Below, in pieces: positions 323-30,001 of a DNA stretch of 63,827 nt. The DNA comes from an uncultured Bacteroidales bacterium. Lineage in GTDB: Bacteria; Bacteroidota; Bacteroidia; Bacteroidales; UBA932. Within the stretch, counting starts at the first letter, position 1. Each line of letters starts with the position of its first letter. Location: contig CALVBH010000017.1 in NCBI GenBank assembly GCA_944325765.1, positions 1-63,827 on the forward strand, given 5' to 3'. The notes beneath the pieces were generated by a model, which was given only the letters and a program-made list of their open reading frames with translations, had not been told where the DNA came from and made no database searches. Both the position numbers and the translations under genes were made by a program.

Positions 323-1981
<1,659 letters not shown>

Positions 1982-14928: not shown

Positions 14929-17900
14929 TCAGATTTTCCTTATATTGAATTCCACCGGCTGACCGTGAAGACAAGTCGCCGTAATGGAAGTTTTCCCGCC
15001 TTCGCGGGCAATATCCACATTGTCCGCAGGTTCCGATAGTTCCCAGTCTCCGTCCACGACCACTTTCCTGAGCAAAGGCTGGCTCGGCTGCGGCGTGGTA
15101 TAGGCTTTCTGCGTAATACCCAGATCAGGCGTGCAGATGCTCATCACTACCGTTCCGTCCCCGGCCGTCCGCTCCATTACCATGGTTTCCGCATCTATAG
15201 ATACCACAGGAAGACAAGGCTTCGCGTCCTTTCCCTTCGGCAGAGCCGCAAGACCTTCGGCTGAAGCCGCGCTGTCATACGCCCCGTAGCAGGCGTATGC
15301 GGTAATTCCCGTAATATGGTCGTTCACCACATGGGCATCGTTGTCGCGGCGTATGACCGTATACGGCAGTTTCTTCGAGAACTGCTTCACTTCCTTGCCT
15401 GCGGGCTGGACAAGCATCATATACTCGTAGGATGCATTGTCCGGAGACACTCCATGGTCGATATATGCCGTTACGAAGTCACCTGTACCCTCTTTCTTTC
15501 TCGTATCGGACGGGGATGTCTGTGTCTGCTTCACCACTGTCAGACCCGCTGCATCGGGAATGATGAACCAGTTTCCGAGAGGGTCATTCAGGACTGCCTG
15601 TCCTTCTCTCGCAAACCTGTATGTGGACGGGAACGGAAAATCACCGAAGAAATCATCGTTTATGTCCACTATCAGGCCTTCCCTGTCCTCTATCTTCAGC
15701 TGGAACAGCGTGGTCTCTGTCGGATAGCCGTAATTTTTCGTATTCGAAATTCCGCTTCCGAGATATATTATCCTGTTGTCGAAACAGAATACGCTCTTGG
15801 TGGCAGTCGCGCCAGCACAGAAATTCACCCTGTCTTTCTCCACGTATGTAAATGCCATCATACCGTTCCGCTTCTCCAAAGAGGAGACTCCCGGAAAACG
15901 GGAATCGTTCCGCTCCATAAGCGTACCTTTCAGAGGGCTGTTCAGCATATCGAAAGGCAGATGGACAGTCGTGGCTCCAGGCACTCTGTTCCAGTCCCAG
16001 CCTTCCTGGGAAAAGCCGCTCGCCTTCGCCGACACCGGTTTTCCGCTGCCTATGAGCTGGACCGTACCGTAACTCTGATATCTTCCGAAACGGTTGTCGG
16101 CCGCATATATTTCAGCACTCCACACATCGGAATTATAAGCCTTGAGGGAAAGCATCCAGTTATCGCGGCGATGAATGCCGAGGGCGGCATAATTCAGTAC
16201 GAAAAAGCCTTCTGGAGCGGCAGACGCGCCTGAAACCCCGGCCTTGCGAAGCGCGGATACGCTTTCCTGGTTCGCACCTCCGAGATAAAGGTACGCCCCG
16301 CCCAAATCGGGATCGGCAGCCAGGCCGGAACCGGTCAGGTCACCCAGAAGGGCGAGAGCCGCGAAAGCTTCTATGTCAGCCTTCGGAATAAATCCGTTGA
16401 ACGGATGACGCCCGCAGATACCTACTCCCCAGTCAGTAAGATTACAGTAGTCGCGCAAAGTGAGCAATGCATGCTTGAATGTCTTTCTGGCTTCTTCTGT
16501 GATGACGAAATCCGTCCCGTTGGTATAGTTGCAGAAATCTCCCAGGGCAGCAAAGGCGCCCACGGAATATGCCGGATAATGTCCTCCATGATGGAAGGAG
16601 GTCCCGTCTACCTTGAAGCCGCCGAGCGTTCCCGGAGAATATGATATGGAACCCGACACCCATCTTCCCAGTGCCGCCATCTTAGCATACCTCTCGGACG
16701 GGTCCGGGGTCATCATCGCAGCTATCTCCTTTGCCTCCAACAGGGTATGCCAGCTGTCCAGGATTTCGTCCCTGCCGTACACGAACGGAAGCCTTGTTTC
16801 CTGCAGGCCGCTCCAGTACTCCAGGACCTTCTGATATTCTTCAAGTTTGCCGGCAGCGGCTATTTCATCCCTGAGAAGCCAGAGTCCGCGGTAGAGCTCC
16901 CTTATCTGATAGCCGTAGTGATGGTTCGTACCCTGTCCGCTTCCGTATGCAAAGCCCTGGTCTATGGCATGGTCCATTCCGACGAACACCTTGTCGAGAT
17001 TCGCCTTGTTCCCCGTGTACGCATAATCCTGGGCATAATAGTAAATCATCTGGCCGATATAACGGATTCTCATCTCCCCGCGCGCGTTGTTGAACTCATC
17101 GTCACTAAGCAGAGGAGCCCCGATAACCGAACCGTCCGGCAGACGCCGCATACCATATTTATTATATGTATCATCGGCCCTCGGAATCAGCGTACCCGTG
17201 ACGTAATTCTGGCTGGAGCTTCCGGACTTGATGAACCTGTCCATCCTTTCCTCGACAGTATCCAGCATCTTCTGCTGTTCTTCAGTAACCGGCGTCACTT
17301 CCAGGGAGGGATACTGCTCCCACTCCCACAGACGGCACCAGTGCCACATGTTCCTTTTCAGATTATAATTGTTCTGAGGAATCTGCATATCCGGGGTAAT
17401 CTGGTCGTGCAGTTTGTTTCTCGAAAATGTCACCCTGTCCACGAAAATGGTCCCTTCCGGCACGGAAGCCGGAGGAGTGACGGTCATCCTGGCTACGTTC
17501 ACGGCCCTGTCGGCGAGTTTTCTGTCACCGTAATGCCCGTAAGGACATGGCATGTCGATATACTTTATCCAGGCTGTACGCCACCCCTTGAAATCCATAT
17601 TGAAATCGAAATGGCAGATTTCCTCTTCGCTCCAGTTCCAGAAAGTAAAACGCAGCGGGGCATCCATCGGGGCGGTATTGTAAATCCATATTATGATGCC
17701 GGCTCCGTTCACTTTCATGGAAGCCTCGATCTCCGTGCAGTTGTTGAACGCCAGGGCAGCCTGGCCCTTCCACGTGAATTTCACCGAAGACTTGCCGTCC
17801 TTGAACTTTTCCCCGGAAGACACTGCGGTACCGTTACCGATTACCTTGAGGAATCCGGGAACGCCGGATTCGAAATCATATTGGGAATTAATAGCCGCAT

Positions 17901-23981: not shown

Positions 23982-26645
23982 ATGATGAAAGACTTATATC
24001 TGAAATCCGCGTGCATCGCTGCAGCCCTGATCGGCTGGACCGCCTGCGTCGACACCTCCGGACTGGAGGACAGACTCGACTCACTCGAGGACAGAGTCGA
24101 CGCTATCGAAAAGAAGGTGGCGCAGATAAACGGGAATACGGCAGCCGTGTACGCCCTGCACCAGGAAGGACTTCTGGTTATGGACGTGCAGGCCTATGAC
24201 AACAATACTGCATACAGGCTCGAAATGAGTGACGGAAATTCGATAACTGTATACGTGGCTCAGGACGGTACAGGCATAACTCCGGTCATAGGTCTGGATC
24301 AGGAAGGGAACTGGACGCTGACTATGTTCGAAGGAGACGAACCGGTCATCATCGGCTCGGTCAGTGCAGCCAGCATTCCGCAGCTGCAGGTAAGTTCCGA
24401 GGGATACTGGCAGATAAAACTGCAGGAAGACTCCGAATGGGAGAATATCCTCGACAGCGACAGCCGGCCGATAGAAGCTACCGGCTCGAGCATTACCGAT
24501 TCCTTCTTCGAAGAAGTCGTTTATGACGAGGAAGAAAACACCATCGGAATCACCATGAAAGGCGGTGAAACTCTCTCGCTCGAAGTGCATAACGAACTTA
24601 TCACCATGGAAGTGGAAGGCTTCGATTTGGAGAATGGCGAGACCCTGTACAAAAATCAGGTTTGTCATTTCTACGCAACGTTTTCCGAAGACGTGGTGAA
24701 TGCCTACTCCAAACAGCCGGACGGCTGGAATGTGGAAATACGTCCGGAAGAAGAAGGCGGTCCGAGACATGTATTCATCGTCTCCGCCCCTGCCGAATGC
24801 ACCGAAGGCTCATACGAGGTAAAAGTATATCTCGAATCCGAAGAACACTATCTCAGGGTGTACAGGTTCACCTTCGATTACAGTACGGCGGACATAAACG
24901 CTTCCGACAGCGAAACCTGGAACAAATTCAAGAGCGGCGCTGACGACAACGTCCTTCTCGACTTTTCATACGCCGGGTACAAACACGGAGAGGTCGGTCC
25001 TCCGGATGTAACCGTCTACAAAACTGCCGACGGGCAATATGCGACCAACCTGTCCGGATATACCGTATACAACATAGAAGACTACGGTGCGGTCGGCACT
25101 GACGAAGAGTCTGACAGGCAGGCATTCCTCGATGCCGTAAGCGCCGCCCTCGGCACGACTTATACCAGCAACGAGAACGGCATCACTTTCAATCCGCCCA
25201 AGGGCGACAATGCCAACGCGATAGTATACATCCCGGAAGGCAACTTCATCCTCCACTCCGAGGAAGACAATATCCCCGATGACTCATACGAAGAAAACGC
25301 ATACTCCCAGACCATCATCATCAGGGCGAGCAACTTCATACTGAAAGGCGCGGACCGCACAAAATCCAGAATAATAATGAAGTCGCCGCTCCTCCCGTCC
25401 GGACCGAACGGGAAGAAAGGAGTGGATGCGTCGCGCCTGCTCTACGCATCTCCCGATATGATTCAGATCAAGCACAATACCGGAGTCGAATACAAGAATG
25501 TCCTGGCCAGTGTCACCGGCGATTCTCCGAAAGGATCCTTCGAAGTCACGGTCGGAAGCACGGCAGGTCTTGCGCCCGGACAGTGGGTATGCCTGTACAT
25601 GGCTCCGAACCCTTCTGATGAAGCAGTGTCTGCCGAACTGGATCCTCACGAGCCCGACGGTCCTGCCGCGGGGAACTGGGCCATCGCAAAAAATGGAGTG
25701 ACCGTAGAAGACTTCCATCAGATAAAGTCTGTCAGCGGAAACAGGGTGACATTCCATGAACCGCTGATGCATGAAGTATGCGCCGATTTCGGATGGACCA
25801 TACTGAACTATAAATACTACCAGAACAACGGTATCGAAGATCTGACATTCGTCGGAGATGCAAAGGAAGACTTCGTACACCATGCTTCCTGGCAGGATGA
25901 CGGCGGATACAAACCTGTCAGTATGACCAGAATGGTAAACTCCTGGATGCGCCGCGTGGATTTCGAAAGCGTGAGCGAGGCCTGCTCCATCATTTCCAGC
26001 GCGAACGTATCCGTATTCGACAGCCATATTTCCGGCAAGAGAGGACACTCGTCCATCCGGTCTCAGGGTTCGTCCAGAGTCTTTATCGGCAAGGTCACTG
26101 ACAACGCTTACGGCAAACTTGCCGGCCCTAACGGACAAAGTCAGGGCACAGGCAATGCTGACAATACCGGACAGTACCATGCCACCGGAGTATCGAAACT
26201 CAGCATGGGCGCAGTCCTCTGGAACAACGTATGGGGAGACGACAGCTGCTTCGAATCCCACGCCTCGCAGCCACGCGCCACACTGGTGGACATCTGCAAG
26301 GGCGGATTCATGAGATACAGACAGGGCGGAGACGAAACCCAGGTTCCGAACCACCTGAACGACCTGACCATCTGGAATTTCGAAGCAACAAATGTGGACA
26401 ACATCGCTCTGGACCTCGGAGCCGGAGCCAAGTTCATCTGGTGGGACGCTGCATCGAGATGGTGGAAAATACTTCCTCCGGTAATAGTCGGATTCCATGG
26501 GCAGCCGGTAACTTTCGATGAAAGTCCGGAACAGATAAAGGTTCTGGAAAGCAACGGCAATGCCGTCACACCGAACTCACTGTACGAAGCACAGTTGATA
26601 AACAGGCTCGGATACGTCCCTGCATGGCTTCAAATGTTGAAATAA
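23982..26645 (+). CDS. DUF4988 + DUF4955-like beta-helix lipoprotein (candidate PL29-type lyase)
   Basis: An 887-residue product. A lipoprotein leader (ALIGWTACVD) is followed by a short heptad coiled coil (LEDRLDSLEDRVDAIEKKV, residues ~29-47), the hallmark of DUF4988, then beta repeats of the GITPVIGLDQEGNWTL type. From about 360 it turns into a right-handed parallel beta helix: YNIEDYGAVGTDEESDRQAF, IVYIPEGNFIL, then rungs to about 830. This matches DUF4955-like proteins. Beta-helix enzymes in this PUL position may be lyases; I recall that the PL29 founder BT3328 comes from the B. thetaiotaomicron chondroitin PUL, but homology must be aligned. Function is not proven; a surface glycan binder is the alternative. 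Confidence 0.75.
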   Translation: MMKDLYLKSACIAAALIGWTACVDTSGLEDRLDSLEDRVDAIEKKVAQINGNTAAVYALHQEGLLVMDVQAYDNNTAYRLEMSDGNSITVYVAQDGTGITPVIGLDQEGNWTLTMFEGDEPVIIGSVSAASIPQLQVSSEGYWQIKLQEDSEWENILDSDSRPIEATGSSITDSFFEEVVYDEEENTIGITMKGGETLSLEVHNELITMEVEGFDLENGETLYKNQVCHFYATFSEDVVNAYSKQPDGWNVEIRPEEEGGPRHVFIVSAPAECTEGSYEVKVYLESEEHYLRVYRFTFDYSTADINASDSETWNKFKSGADDNVLLDFSYAGYKHGEVGPPDVTVYKTADGQYATNLSGYTVYNIEDYGAVGTDEESDRQAFLDAVSAALGTTYTSNENGITFNPPKGDNANAIVYIPEGNFILHSEEDNIPDDSYEENAYSQTIIIRASNFILKGADRTKSRIIMKSPLLPSGPNGKKGVDASRLLYASPDMIQIKHNTGVEYKNVLASVTGDSPKGSFEVTVGSTAGLAPGQWVCLYMAPNPSDEAVSAELDPHEPDGPAAGNWAIAKNGVTVEDFHQIKSVSGNRVTFHEPLMHEVCADFGWTILNYKYYQNNGIEDLTFVGDAKEDFVHHASWQDDGGYKPVSMTRMVNSWMRRVDFESVSEACSIISSANVSVFDSHISGKRGHSSIRSQGSSRVFIGKVTDNAYGKLAGPNGQSQGTGNADNTGQYHATGVSKLSMGAVLWNNVWGDDSCFESHASQPRATLVDICKGGFMRYRQGGDETQVPNHLNDLTIWNFEATNVDNIALDLGAGAKFIWWDAASRWWKILPPVIVGFHGQPVTFDESPEQIKVLESNGNAVTPNSLYEAQLINRLGYVPAWLQMLK

Positions 26646-26661
26646 TAAAACCATTAACTAT

Positions 26662-29034
26662 ATGAAACTGAAATCTAACATATTCGCCAAATGGGCAGGC
26701 ATCATCGCCGGATGCGCATCGGTAATCGCCTGCTCCGATCTCAGCGAACTCGAAGAAAGAGTGGACGACCTCGACAGCCGGGTCACCGCATTGGAGACAC
26801 AGGTCGAGAATCTGAACACCAGCATAGAAGCGATACAGGCTATCGCCGAGGCAGGCAATGTAATAACAGGCATAACTGAAAACAACGGAGAATACACCAT
26901 CACCACTTCTGACGGAAAGACCTACACGCTCAAACAGGGAGAATCCGGCAAGACCCCGCAGATAGGCATAAACGAAGACGGGAACTGGCAGGTCAGATAT
27001 GACAACGGCGACGGTACCTGGACTGACTGGACTGTAATCAATGTGGGAGACAGCGATACCCCGGCAAGTGCCGTAGCAGTAGTCCCGCAGTTCAGGGTGA
27101 ATGACGAAGGGAACTGGGAAATCAGCACCAACGGAGGAGTAAATTTTAACCCTGTCTACAAAGAGGGAACCGAAGATCCTGTTCCTGCGACAGGTGATTC
27201 CGGCTCCGACATCTTCAAGAGTGTCACATACTCCCCTGAAGACGGTCTGCTCCATATAGTAATGCATGACGATACGGAACTCGACGTACTCGTGGTTTCA
27301 GACTTCGGCTGCTCCATCTGGAACGAAGCAGGTACAGAAGTGATTGACTACGACACTCCGGTTTCCGTCCCAGTAAATACGACCGTAAGGTTCACGGTAA
27401 AGACCACCAACGTAACCGCTCTCGACATCGAGGCTCCTTCTGGCTGGGCAACCGTGATGGGAGACATCGATGCATCAGGCATCGCTACACTGGAAGTGAC
27501 AGCCCCGGACAAGGCCGAATCCGTAGAACTGACCAAAATCACATCCAATTCAAAACGGGATGTGACCATACATGCCACGAACAAGGACGGCAAGTCCACA
27601 TTCGCAAAAATCCAGGTACGCGCGGTAGCCGGCGACATACCGGAAGTGACAGTCACGGCAGCCGAAACCCAGGGCTTCAACATACTCACGTTCAGTTTCG
27701 CTGATGCCCAGCACCTGACATCATACAGATACCTCCTCTACAAGGCCGGTACTATGGAGCCGGGAGAATCGGCTTTCCCTGCATCGAGTGAAATCAACAT
27801 AGCGGATGCCTCCGATATCGACGATCTCGAAATCAGCAAAACTGCAGACGGGGCCGCTCTCGAATTCGGCACCGATTACGTCCTCTATGTACTGCCTGTC
27901 AATACTACCTCAGCAGGAATCACTACCGGCAACATCATCAAGGTCGAGGCAAGCACACGCACCCCTGAGAAGTACTCCGACCTTTACGAAGCCGGCATCG
28001 ACTTCACCATAGGGGATGTTACCATCAACAAGACCACTTACGGTGAAGCTATTGAAGTCACATCGGCAAATGCTTCTATTACAAACAATAAGACCGGTGA
28101 CACAAATGGAATGGCAGTTTACTTCGTCAATTCAGATGCCAATGCGAAATTTAATGTTACAAACGGAATCAATACGATGTTGATCATCGGCAATGATCTG
28201 GACGAGAAGAGCCCGTTGACGGTAAGCAGCAGAATCTCCCTGAACCAAGGCGCAGACAATACAGGCGGACAATTCTTATGCTATAACCTGTCAGTGGATA
28301 TGACCGGCTTCGATAATTACCATATGTATATGACGGCAAACGGGACGTATAGCTATGCAGGTTTTGTCGGCTGCGATATCCACCTTTCAACATACGCTAT
28401 GTTCGGAGGGTTCAATTCCGCACGTAAACTTGATGAAATCAGTTTTGACAGCTGTAATTTCAATGTAAGTCGTTTGACGAGCCAGACTGTTCTGATAAAT
28501 CCTGGCAGCACCCAAAACGTTTCTATCGGAACGATATCATTTACCAACAATATCGTTTATTCGACAGCAGAAACAGGGAAAGCAGATTTCAGAATACTGT
28601 TAGGCTCTTACCCTATTGTTGACGAGGTTATTCTGAGAAACAACACCTTCATCAATGTATGGCACGGCAATGGAAGTGCAACACCGGCATTCTTCGGATA
28701 CCAGACACTAGCGAAAGTAGAAGCAGAAAACAACTTGTTCTGGACTGATAAGACATTCTCCAACAACTTTACCGTATTCAGATTTCCAACTGGGGCCGGA
28801 AACCACCCGGACGGAGACATATGCAGGGACAATGTCATCTACTGTCCGAATGTCGGGACAAACAATTTCTGGATGTTCTTTAACAACATCAATACTGTCA
28901 TTGATAATGGATTCACTGACGCCAAAGAAATAAGAAGGATAACAGACAATCCGTATGAAGGCGGAGAGTTCATCCTGGAGGACGCAGTATTCGTTCCGAA
29001 CTCAACTTACAGCTCGTACGGAGCAACACGATAG
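26662..29034 (+). CDS. DUF4988 lipoprotein with beta-helix (DUF4957/DUF5123-like) C-terminus
   Basis: A 790-residue product. Lipobox ASVIACSD; coiled coil ELEERVDDLDSRVTALETQV at about 27-50; two beta units of the type GKTPQIGINEDGNWQV; Ig-like and FN3-like segments to about 440; then a beta helix (from ~450) with repeated ISFDSCNFNV and VILRNNTFINV rungs. The N-terminal third is a paralogue of the preceding gene's. The last kilobase is much more AT-rich than the rest (about 40 % against 57 % GC in sampled 60-base blocks), which suggests that module was acquired separately. Likely a surface glycan-binding or glycan-acting protein closing the operon; no catalytic residues recognised. Confidence 0.7.
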   Translation: MKLKSNIFAKWAGIIAGCASVIACSDLSELEERVDDLDSRVTALETQVENLNTSIEAIQAIAEAGNVITGITENNGEYTITTSDGKTYTLKQGESGKTPQIGINEDGNWQVRYDNGDGTWTDWTVINVGDSDTPASAVAVVPQFRVNDEGNWEISTNGGVNFNPVYKEGTEDPVPATGDSGSDIFKSVTYSPEDGLLHIVMHDDTELDVLVVSDFGCSIWNEAGTEVIDYDTPVSVPVNTTVRFTVKTTNVTALDIEAPSGWATVMGDIDASGIATLEVTAPDKAESVELTKITSNSKRDVTIHATNKDGKSTFAKIQVRAVAGDIPEVTVTAAETQGFNILTFSFADAQHLTSYRYLLYKAGTMEPGESAFPASSEINIADASDIDDLEISKTADGAALEFGTDYVLYVLPVNTTSAGITTGNIIKVEASTRTPEKYSDLYEAGIDFTIGDVTINKTTYGEAIEVTSANASITNNKTGDTNGMAVYFVNSDANAKFNVTNGINTMLIIGNDLDEKSPLTVSSRISLNQGADNTGGQFLCYNLSVDMTGFDNYHMYMTANGTYSYAGFVGCDIHLSTYAMFGGFNSARKLDEISFDSCNFNVSRLTSQTVLINPGSTQNVSIGTISFTNNIVYSTAETGKADFRILLGSYPIVDEVILRNNTFINVWHGNGSATPAFFGYQTLAKVEAENNLFWTDKTFSNNFTVFRFPTGAGNHPDGDICRDNVIYCPNVGTNNFWMFFNNINTVIDNGFTDAKEIRRITDNPYEGGEFILEDAVFVPNSTYSSYGATR

Positions 29035-29050
29035 CAACTCTCTGCATAAT

Positions 29051-29090
29051 AAAAAACATCCACGGTACCAATGTATCGTGGATGTTTTTT
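29051..29090 (+). terminator. Terminator of the plus PUL operon
   Basis: AAAAAACATCCACG (29051-29064) pairs perfectly with CGTGGATGTTTTTT (29077-29090), with four more pairs inside. The A/T tails make a classic intrinsic terminator 17 bases after the last stop. Confidence 0.92.
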
Positions 29091-29109
29091 ATATCATTGA
29101 CAGAATGCA

Positions 29110-29197
29110 AACTGCGGAGGCGGGAGGACAGCAACGAGCACTGTTGATTTCCGTCAGGAAATTGTAGTCTGTGCGAGCGTTGTCCTCCCGTTTCCGC
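29110..29197. repeat. Structured extragenic repeat, copy A
   Basis: Starts AACTGCGGA and folds into one long hairpin. A 17-pair outer stem (29114-29130 with 29181-29197, including two G-U pairs) is followed by AACG/CGTT and GCAC/GTGC pairs and an inner hairpin ATTTCC-GTCA-GGAAAT. It is 72/74 identical in its core to copy B, 129 bp downstream, and the differences keep base pairing. With copy B and two flanking terminators it fills the 368-bp gap between the PUL and ompH. No gene is supported here. Confidence 0.85.
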
Positions 29198-29233
29198 CAG
29201 GATGACACTGGACAGAAAGACATTACACAAGAT

Positions 29234-29326
29234 AACTGCGGAAAGGAGACAGGAGGACAGCAGCGAGCACTGTTGATTTCCGTCAGGAAATTGTAGTCTG
29301 TGCGAGCGTTGTCCTCCCGTCTCCGA
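29234..29326. repeat. Structured extragenic repeat, copy B
   Basis: Same architecture as copy A. The outer stem is GGAGGACA/TGTCCTCC (29252-29259 with 29310-29317) extended, after one mismatch, by GGAGAC/GTCTCC (29245-29250 with 29319-29324). Inner stems and the GTCA loop are identical to copy A. Flanking bases differ from copy A but still pair. Both copies lie in the convergent gap between two terminators, the usual site of REP/BIME-like elements. Confidence 0.85.
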
Positions 29327-29348
29327 CGTACACAGCCATAAATGAAAA

Positions 29349-29382
29349 AGCGTCACAAACGGTTTTTCCCGTTTGTGACGCT
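29349..29382 (-). terminator. Terminator of the ompH operon
   Basis: AGCGTCACAAACGG (29349-29362) pairs perfectly with CCGTTTGTGACGCT (29369-29382). On the minus strand it is followed by TTTTCATTTATGG, 20 bases beyond the ompH stop. Confidence 0.88.
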
Positions 29383-29402
29383 ATGTTAAAAAAGAGGAAA
29401 GA

Positions 29403-29969
29403 CTACTGTTGCTGAGCCTGGGCTGCAGCCTGACGGGCCGCCATAACTGACTCGATGGTCTTGTCAGCCGGGATATTCAGAGCCGTGCGTGCTTCAGGAG
29501 TCAGATCGATGCTCTGTGCGGTATCGATATAAAGAAGCGACGAAGCATCGTAAACGTAAATGACGCCCTTCTCCTTGGCCAGATTCCTTACCACATCCTG
29601 AGCCTTCTGATAAATAGGAGCCATCAGGGTATTCTGGAGCTGGCTCATATCCTGCTGGATAGCCTGCTCGAACTCCTGTATCCTGTTCTGAATCTCACCC
29701 AGTTCTCTCTGTTTGCTTTCCCTCACGGCAGGAGTCCAGGATTCCTGCTTCTGGTTGAACTGATCGTATTTGGACTGGAACTCAGCCACCATACTCGAAT
29801 AAGTTTCCTGAGCCTCGGTATTGGCAGCTTCAAGCTGAACCATAGCCGAATCAGCCTCAGGCATCAACTGGACCAGTTCACTGAAATTCACATGTGCAAA
29901 CTTCGTCTGTGCCGTAGCAGCAAGACCGAACGAAAACAGAACTGCTGCGATCAAATAGATTCTTTTCAT
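29403..29969 (-). CDS. OmpH/Skp-family periplasmic chaperone
   Basis: A 188-residue product from the ATG at 29969 (MKRIYLIAAVLFSFGLAATAQ, signal peptide); the upstream in-frame Met is rejected. After a first beta strand (KFAHVNFSELVQLMPEADSA) comes a long charged helical hairpin and a closing domain (GVIYVYDASSLLYID), the Skp jellyfish plan. The C-terminus is rich in Q and A. Skp-like proteins hold outer-membrane proteins in the periplasm for BamA, whose gene is directly upstream. Last gene of the nadK-uppS-bamA-ompH operon. Confidence 0.93.
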   Translation of the reverse strand: MKRIYLIAAVLFSFGLAATAQTKFAHVNFSELVQLMPEADSAMVQLEAANTEAQETYSSMVAEFQSKYDQFNQKQESWTPAVRESKQRELGEIQNRIQEFEQAIQQDMSQLQNTLMAPIYQKAQDVVRNLAKEKGVIYVYDASSLLYIDTAQSIDLTPEARTALNIPADKTIESVMAARQAAAQAQQQ

Positions 29970-30001
29970 ATTTTCAATGTTTAAAATTAATTCCACCCGG
30001 C

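What the first reader, a model, noticed from the sequence alone, without database searches (positions are those of the whole stretch)
29110..29326. Twin structured repeats whose differences all keep base pairing
Seen directly: two copies, cores 29123-29196 and 29252-29325, are 72/74 identical and both fold into one long branched-free hairpin with an identical inner GTCA loop. Outside the identical core the flanks differ but still pair: G-U pairs at 29120/29191 and 29119/29192 in copy A become A-U (29249/29320) and G-C (29248/29321) in copy B, and the A-U pair at 29134/29180 becomes G-U (29263/29309). Such pair-keeping change suggests the fold is under selection. The pair sits between two convergent terminators. 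It may be a REP/BIME-like or MITE-like family, or a structured RNA.
Basis: partly seen in the sequence, partly recalled or inferred. Interest (0 to 1): 0.7.

Follow-up and report, generated by a model that had tools for sequence, protein, structure and literature searches.

The report
Dispersed DNA hairpins with conserved tips
Two near-identical hairpins in a gut bacterium's genome belong to a scattered family of small palindromic DNA elements in which the tip hardly changes while the long arms change freely yet stay paired, which offers a way to watch how bacterial genomes make and keep hairpins.

Summary
By record titles the genus is Candidatus Cryptobacteroides (Bacteroidales); 18 of 400 genomes of the genus match, the own one included. 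Each copy has a near-invariant tip (GCACTGTTGA, short stem, TTGTA, C[T/A]GTGC) on long arms that mostly differ between copies, yet 94.6% of outer-arm cells are Watson-Crick pairs and covariation is far above controls. G-T mismatches are no commoner than A-C, which speaks against selection on an RNA. Copies cluster just behind stop codons, mostly in one orientation (49 versus 13); one site is in frame inside truB. At several genes the arms reach into, or resemble, the host gene's end; a general test for arms copied from coding DNA was negative. RAYT-type transposases are mostly not associated, with one exception. Best reading: a REP/RPE-like mobile DNA hairpin whose locus-specific arms are kept perfect by replication template switching. 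Mobilising enzyme and function unknown.

The parts
29122..29189 (+). Copy A of the hairpin element (model extent; stem continues outward to about 29114-29197)
   Evidence: Covariance model R1, 84.2 bits; fold; arms
29138..29174 (+). Copy A conserved tip module GCACTGTTGA...TTGTAGTCTGTGC
   Evidence: Near-invariant columns of A1/A2; exact core at 29139-29166
29251..29318 (+). Copy B of the hairpin element (stem continues outward to about 29245-29324)
   Evidence: Covariance model R1, 82.7 bits; fold; arms
29267..29303 (+). Copy B conserved tip module
   Evidence: Exact core at 29268-29295
29051..29090 (+). Terminator-like hairpin after the left gene
   Evidence: Read from sequence by eye
29350..29381 (-). 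Terminator-like hairpin after the OmpH-like gene
   Evidence: Read from sequence by eye
26662..29034 (+). Left neighbour, 790 aa, DUF4988 protein
29403..29996 (-). Right neighbour, OmpH-like protein, 197 aa

Best explanation
The two hairpins are copies of a dispersed, non-coding palindromic DNA element of Candidatus Cryptobacteroides. SHOWN: a near-invariant tip of about 37 nt (GCAC, asymmetric internal loop, short stem and loop, GTGC) on long arms whose sequence mostly differs from site to site but is almost perfectly paired; patchy presence in the genus; presence and absence at orthologous sites; an in-frame site in truB; preference for the spacer just behind stop codons. INFERRED: the element spreads as DNA, by an unidentified enzyme or as a by-product of replication, with the tip as the part that moves or is recognised. 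Arms are made from, or corrected against, the surrounding sequence by DNA-polymerase template switching (quasi-palindrome correction), which copies a change from one arm to the other, can flip the tip between the arms, and can copy a gene's end to the far side of the tip.
For: Copy number and distribution. Covariation on 94 distinct rows: 22 of 24 pairs with changes on both sides, score 0.573 against 0.180 shuffled (0 of 500) and at most 0.108 for slid versions; that alignment was fitted to the structure. The unfitted 16-row MAFFT alignment: 15 of 24 pairs, 0.453 against 0.220. No G-T excess in the outer 9 pairs of 86 copies: WC 729, GT 12, AC 18, other 12; the 42 copies antisense to a gene only: GT 6, AC 6. 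Pairing goes on beyond the 12-bp model: anchored score >=5 in 31 of 86 against 0.4 expected. Tip flipped between near-identical arms behind the same gene in G260 (L335) and G205 (L320), the spacer inversion that template switching causes (PMC8604942, passages). Orthologous ALDH sites (93% over the 224 coding nt compared) whose arms differ by mirrored changes, both arms 19 nt in G350 and 20 nt in G373. Inverted copy of the native ppk end across the tip in L118 (20 of 21 columns identical; 1 of 400 control pairings scored as high) and a weaker one in L107; the 11 ppk relatives whose gene end could be read show no such copy by eye, and no hairpin hit. A gene end with its stop codon lies inside the arms of L257 (gltD-like by eye; Pfam Pyr_redox_2). 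At cysS a 17-nt post-stop stretch, one base different, is shared with G134 (L277), which has no hairpin hit; its last part forms the gene-side arm. G000 arms after phoH are built on GGGTGG/CCACCC, and at least 5 of 13 relatives have a native GGGTG...CACCC hairpin there (by eye). A G000 class-2 copy is absent at the orthologous spacer in 14 of 14 relatives.
Against: No mobilising enzyme found, and no insertion observed within one lineage. In the 16-row alignment one of five covariation measures, further pair types, did not exceed shuffles (481 of 500 as high). Arms in general do not match adjacent coding DNA more than arms of other loci do (55 sites, mean longest match 5.58 against 5.57), and a looser extension test into coding DNA was only weakly positive (9 of 62 against 5.5 expected at >=10 bases). 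At cysS relatives without the tip already show an inverted repeat of the gene end (by eye), so the arm may predate the tip. At locus B the G373 site without the tip is better read as a deletion, since it keeps one arm and G260 and G350 share the element. The G260 thioesterase site without the element (L348) could be a deletion between direct TAAA repeats. In L137/L139 one arm is 97% identical where the gene is about 80%, which hints at selection there. Class-2 arms in G000 are shared between copies, so some arms travel with the tip. The orientation bias (49 versus 13) could mean an RNA function.
Confidence: 0.48

Rival explanations
1. A structured RNA: a hairpin in the 3' untranslated region, bound by a protein or protecting the mRNA end, with arms kept paired by compensatory selection.
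For: Preference for the few tens of nt behind stop codons and orientation bias 49 to 13; near-invariant unpaired tip bases; strong covariation.
Against: G-T is no commoner than A-C on either strand; 31 of 86 copies have no stop codon within reach; one site is inside the truB reading frame; only 18 of 400 genomes of the genus match; no Rfam family reaches its gathering score there.
Confidence: 0.2
2. The tip inserts into the loop of existing palindromes (terminators or 3' end hairpins), so the arms are simply the host's old hairpin.
For: phoH: G000 arms resemble the native GGGTG...CACCC hairpin of at least 5 of 13 relatives (by eye). cysS: tipless relatives carry an inverted repeat of the gene end (by eye). 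Position behind stop codons.
Against: At tpiA the arms do not resemble the terminators of relatives, and at the gltD-like gene and ALDH no matching hairpin is visible by eye in relatives. G000 class-2 copies share their arms.
Confidence: 0.2
3. A REP/BIME family moved by a RAYT (TnpA-REP), perhaps one of the atypical structures of Bacteroidetes subclass 2.6.
For: Dispersed palindromes with internal mismatches. In G254 a degenerate copy (30.2 bits) lies about 220 bp upstream of a Y1_Tnp gene (L486:2033-2101; ORF 889-1809, minus strand). Some G000 copies lie near a second REP-like palindrome, GTCATCCCGAGCGNAGTCGAGGGATCTG (7 of 16 stretches scanned). Subclass 2.6 is reported with atypical structures in Bacteroidetes (PMC6006769, passages).
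Against: Y1_Tnp at E<=1e-4 in 7 of 18 hairpin genomes against 255 of the other 382, if searches drew the same 400 genomes (handles agree as far as listed). At E<=0.01, 9 of 18; none in G407, G202 and G374, and one below the cut-off in G127, the four richest apart from G000. 11 of 12 Y1 loci of hairpin genomes have no hairpin hit. GTAG or CGTC at the foot is rare. Subclass 2.6 structures are described as weaker.
Confidence: 0.13
4. A recent local duplication of a chance hairpin.
For: The two window copies are 129 bp apart and nearly identical.
Against: 17 strong copies in the genome and many more in the genus.
Confidence: 0.01

Closest known systems
REP / BIME elements (GTAG- and CGTC-tagged palindromes)
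   Same: Dispersed, mostly intergenic palindromes, sometimes intragenic; the CGTC type has no known transposase (PMC3733652, passages).
   Different: REP families are defined by stem, loop and an unpaired foot tag, with 5-13 bp stems; here the stem is largely free in sequence and mostly longer, the tip is conserved, and the foot tag is rare.
Rickettsia palindromic elements (RPE)
   Same: Palindromic and able to sit in frame inside genes (recalled; the literature search gave a listing only; R. conorii RPEs are mentioned in the CGTC paper).
   Different: Here mostly just behind stop codons, with one in-frame site (truB) confirmed; as far as I recall RPEs share sequence along their length.
RAYT subclass 2.6 atypical structures in Bacteroidetes
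   Same: Same phylum; structures without the GTAG foot, with copies elsewhere in the genome (PMC6006769, passages).
   Different: Described as weaker in secondary structure and flanking the transposase gene; here strong, and near only 1 of 12 Y1 loci of hairpin genomes.
Template-switch (quasi-palindrome) hairpins
   Same: Perfect arms, mirrored multi-base changes, loop or spacer inversion (PMC8794818, abstract and passages; PMC8604942, passages).
   Different: Those are local mutations; here a conserved tip is shared by many unrelated sites.

Membership tests
REP (GTAG or CGTC type) | Unpaired GTAG or CGTC at the foot of the hairpin | tested here: not met
   At the two feet of 86 copies: GTAG 4 and 3, CGTC 2 and 5
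REP (GTAG or CGTC type) | Stem sequence shared across the family, 5-13 bp | tested here: not met
   Most outer positions use all four Watson-Crick pair types; most stems run 12 to about 30 bp including the GCAC pairs, two copies gave no long run
RAYT-mobilised REPtron | Hairpins flank a Y1 transposase gene | tested here: inconclusive
   1 of 12 Y1 loci from 9 hairpin genomes has one degenerate copy on one side, 11 have none; 0 of 32 stretches, nearly all from genomes without hairpins
Rickettsia palindromic element | In-frame insertion in protein genes | tested here: met
   truB reading frame stays open through the hairpin in four genomes; Pfam run on the G202 protein only: TruB_N and TruB_C_2 on either side of the repeat stretch
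Rickettsia palindromic element | Sequence homology to RPE families | not tested
   No RPE sequences were fetched; the strict tip pattern gave no Rickettsia record among its 41 stretches in genome contigs
MITE | Terminal inverted repeats shared with a transposon, and a target-site duplication | tested here: inconclusive
   Arms mostly differ between copies, though G000 class-2 copies share them; a possible TAAA duplication at one site; no parent transposon was searched for beyond Y1_Tnp
Known structured RNA (Rfam) | Match at the family's gathering score | tested here: not met
   Window: only a tRNA; permissive scan of 29030-29400: 13 hits, each below its gathering score
Integron attC site | Conserved outer R''/R' boxes (recalled) | tested here: not met
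   No outer-arm position is invariant; the commonest pair takes 22 to 74 of 94 rows. The box motifs themselves were not searched

The most novel reading that the evidence does not exclude
A mobile element reduced to a hairpin tip of about 37 nt: on arrival it makes its own inverted repeats by copying the host sequence next to it (fold-back template switching), so that its arms are host-derived and unique to the site, and the same process keeps them perfect afterwards.
Probability: 0.22. Interest if true: 0.88.

Novelty: new variant of a known kind. Interest (0 to 1): 0.62.

Why it matters
Covariation is widely taken as proof of selected RNA structure. Here a large natural family shows very strong covariation without the G-U signature of RNA selection, so it is a test bed for how much covariation DNA replication alone can produce. 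If the arms are host-derived it would also be a new way for a tiny element to spread, and it gives dozens of sites in one genus at which insertion, tip flipping and arm correction can be followed.

Tried and rejected
Rfam at gathering and permissive thresholds: nothing above threshold on the hairpins. I raised that rival from 0.10 to 0.13 and lowered the best explanation from 0.50 to 0.48 for it. Flavobacteriaceae record L182 scores 23.2 bits and is taken as chance. General copying of arms from coding DNA: negative. First extension test with loose scoring: weakly positive only; a stricter one shows longer pairing but not its source. A gene between two hairpins in L088 (742 aa) looked by eye like a glycoside hydrolase; no profile search was run. 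Locus E (L071 gene) had no match but its own. My checkpoint note says that the 125-nt repeat is in all 17 genomes; one search lists it in 12 of 17. Papers: five-term search for RPEs in genes, 0 papers; conserved loop with variable stem, 0; Cryptobacteroides with repeat and hairpin, 0; Bacteroidales with intergenic repeats and palindromes, 15 papers, 10 listed, seen as a listing only, none naming this family. Only open-access PMC papers are held.

Full report
WHAT WAS CLAIMED AND WHETHER IT IS THERE. The two copies are at the stated coordinates, 72 of 74 identical in the cores, and fold far better than shuffles (z -6.8 and -7.3, 0 of 200). The flanking pair changes are as described; the pair 29134/29180 is not in the predicted folds. 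The pair of copies lies between a DUF4988 gene and an OmpH-like gene, each followed by a terminator-like hairpin (by eye).

IT IS A FAMILY. BLAST of copy A against the own genome gave 20 matches at E<=1, 15 of them at E<=0.01; by eye four of the weakest (L016, L017, L019, L020) are unrelated. The core pattern CACTGTTGA-N8-30-TTGTA occurs 16 times, its reversed control 0 times. A covariance model from 16 copies finds 17 strong copies and one weak one at 30.8 bits. Across 400 genomes of the genus, 18 have a match at E<=0.001, the own one included; only 12 candidates per genome were scored, so counts are lower bounds. With DNA alone 2 of 61 genomes matched, the own one and G004, whose match covers only 23 bases. 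A scan of one genome for each of 84,980 species with a strict tip pattern gave 41 stretches: 40 from records titled Bacteroidales or Ca. Cryptobacteroides, and one from Flavobacteriaceae that I take as chance. The genus name rests on one record, Ca. Cryptobacteroides merdigallinarum, whose hairpin sits at the same contig coordinates as that of G285, a genome of the same genus as the window's.

ANATOMY. In A3 (97 matches, 94 distinct rows) the tip is near-invariant: GCAC, TGT, TGA + short stem + loop + short stem + TTG, TA, 2-3 free bases, C[T/A], GTGC. The short stem varies with compensation (TTTCC/GGAAA, CCCC/GGGG and others). Where GCAC meets the arms there is often a GA/GA internal loop (CGAGCAC/GTGCGAG), in other copies replaced by Watson-Crick pairs. 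Most arm positions use all four Watson-Crick pair types. Covariation: 22 of 24 pairs with both-side changes, score 0.573 against 0.180 shuffled and at most 0.108 slid (that alignment is fitted to the structure). The unfitted 16-row alignment gives 0.453 against 0.220, but its count of further pair types does not exceed shuffles.

DNA OR RNA. In the outer nine pairs of 86 copies (97 less 11 repeats, partial or reverse-strand rows) there are 729 WC, 12 G-T, 18 A-C and 12 other cells. The 42 copies lying antisense to a neighbouring gene only have 6 G-T and 6 A-C. An RNA under selection should favour G-U on its own strand; no such excess is seen. This is the main reason not to call it a structured RNA.

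WHERE IT SITS. Of 86 copies, 42 have a stop codon of a long ORF within reach on the antisense side only, 6 on the sense side only, 7 on both and 31 on neither (ORFs called by length alone). Antisense 49 against sense 13 is a bias that I cannot explain. In truB the frame stays open through the element in four genomes; in G202 it is a tandem array of 66-bp units, 22 codons each. Pfam on the G202 protein finds TruB_N (65-172) and TruB_C_2 (388-428) with the repeats between. Partial tandem repeats also occur elsewhere (L116, L103, L140, L090; by eye).

PRESENCE AND ABSENCE. For a class-2 copy in G000 (L127:1211-1277) 14 of 14 relatives with both flanks lack the hairpin (13 spacers printed, L209 by coordinates; no model hit in any of the 14). 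At ppk, L107 and L118 have it; of 12 other loci 11 show the gene end and none has the element by eye, and none of the 12 has a model hit. At phoH 13 relatives have no credible hit (best 16.9 bits, E 0.76) and at tpiA 14 have none. At the thioesterase gene G205 and G373 share one copy, G374 has one with other arms, and eight other genomes have none (L348-L353, L362, L363). At locus B (RGLGELSK... protein) G350 and G260 have it; G373 keeps only the gene-side arm, best read as a deletion. Behind the locus C gene the tip is flipped between G205 and G260 while arms and gene end agree.

WHERE THE ARMS COME FROM. For: the ppk end is repeated inverted beyond the tip in L118 (score 17.5; 1 of 400 control pairings as high) and more weakly in L107; a gene end and stop codon lie inside the arms in L257; the ALDH end pairs imperfectly with the far flank in G350 and G373; the cysS post-stop stretch GGATTTCAGTYGTACCG is shared with tipless G134; and the phoH arms of G000 resemble native hairpins. 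Against: arms as a set do not match coding DNA next door more than that of other loci; at cysS relatives without the tip already have an inverted repeat of the gene end; and class-2 arms in G000 are shared, so they travel. I hold host-derived arms as likely at some sites and unproven in general. Gene names come from Pfam; gltD is my reading of a Pyr_redox_2 protein.

MECHANISM. Template switching is known to make perfect stems in one event, to correct stems in multi-base steps and to invert loops (PMC8794818, abstract and passages; PMC8604942, passages). The mirrored changes at ALDH, and in part at ppk, the flipped tip and the lack of a G-U preference fit. What brings the tip to new sites is not known. 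RAYTs are the obvious candidate. Y1_Tnp at E<=1e-4 is found in 7 of 18 hairpin genomes against 255 of 382 others, if both draws of 400 are the same; at E<=0.01 in 9 of 18, with none in G407, G202 and G374. Of 12 Y1 loci in hairpin genomes 11 have no hairpin; in G254 a degenerate copy of 30.2 bits lies about 220 bp upstream of the gene. That one case keeps the RAYT reading alive. G000's own Y1 protein is 357 aa.

COMPARISON. It works like a REP or RPE: a small palindrome scattered in spacers and now and then in genes. It fails the REP features of foot tag and shared short stem; the transposase neighbour is inconclusive. In-frame insertion is shared with RPEs, but homology was not tested. Hence a new variant of a known kind.

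Noticed in passing
L127:5861-5992 (G000:C91, about 17360-17491): Another dispersed repeat of about 125 nt with GACTCAAAAGG...CCTTTTGAGT ends and a strong fold. Matches are listed in 12 of 17 relatives, often many per genome; no Rfam match at E<=0.01; no match in the window.
   Followed up: partly
G000 loci L003, L007, L014, L015, L125, L126, L127: A second REP-like palindrome, GTCATCCCGAGCGNAGTCGAGGGATCTG and variants, lies near hairpins in 7 of 16 stretches scanned.
   Followed up: no
L486:2033-2101 (G254): A degenerate hairpin copy (30.2 bits) about 220 bp upstream of a Y1_Tnp gene; the only such neighbour among 12 Y1 loci of hairpin genomes.
   Followed up: partly
L323 (G127), L355 and L356 (G350, G373): Hairpins at orthologous sites with a related but altered tip (by eye), which model R1 does not report even at E<=10: the family is probably larger than counted.
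   Followed up: no
L085:957-1207: Four tandem 66-bp units inside truB of G202, adding 22 residues per unit in frame.
   Followed up: partly
window 23982-26645 and 26662-29034: Two adjacent large ORFs (887 and 790 aa) with similar-looking starts; the second matches DUF4988, the first was not scanned.
   Followed up: no
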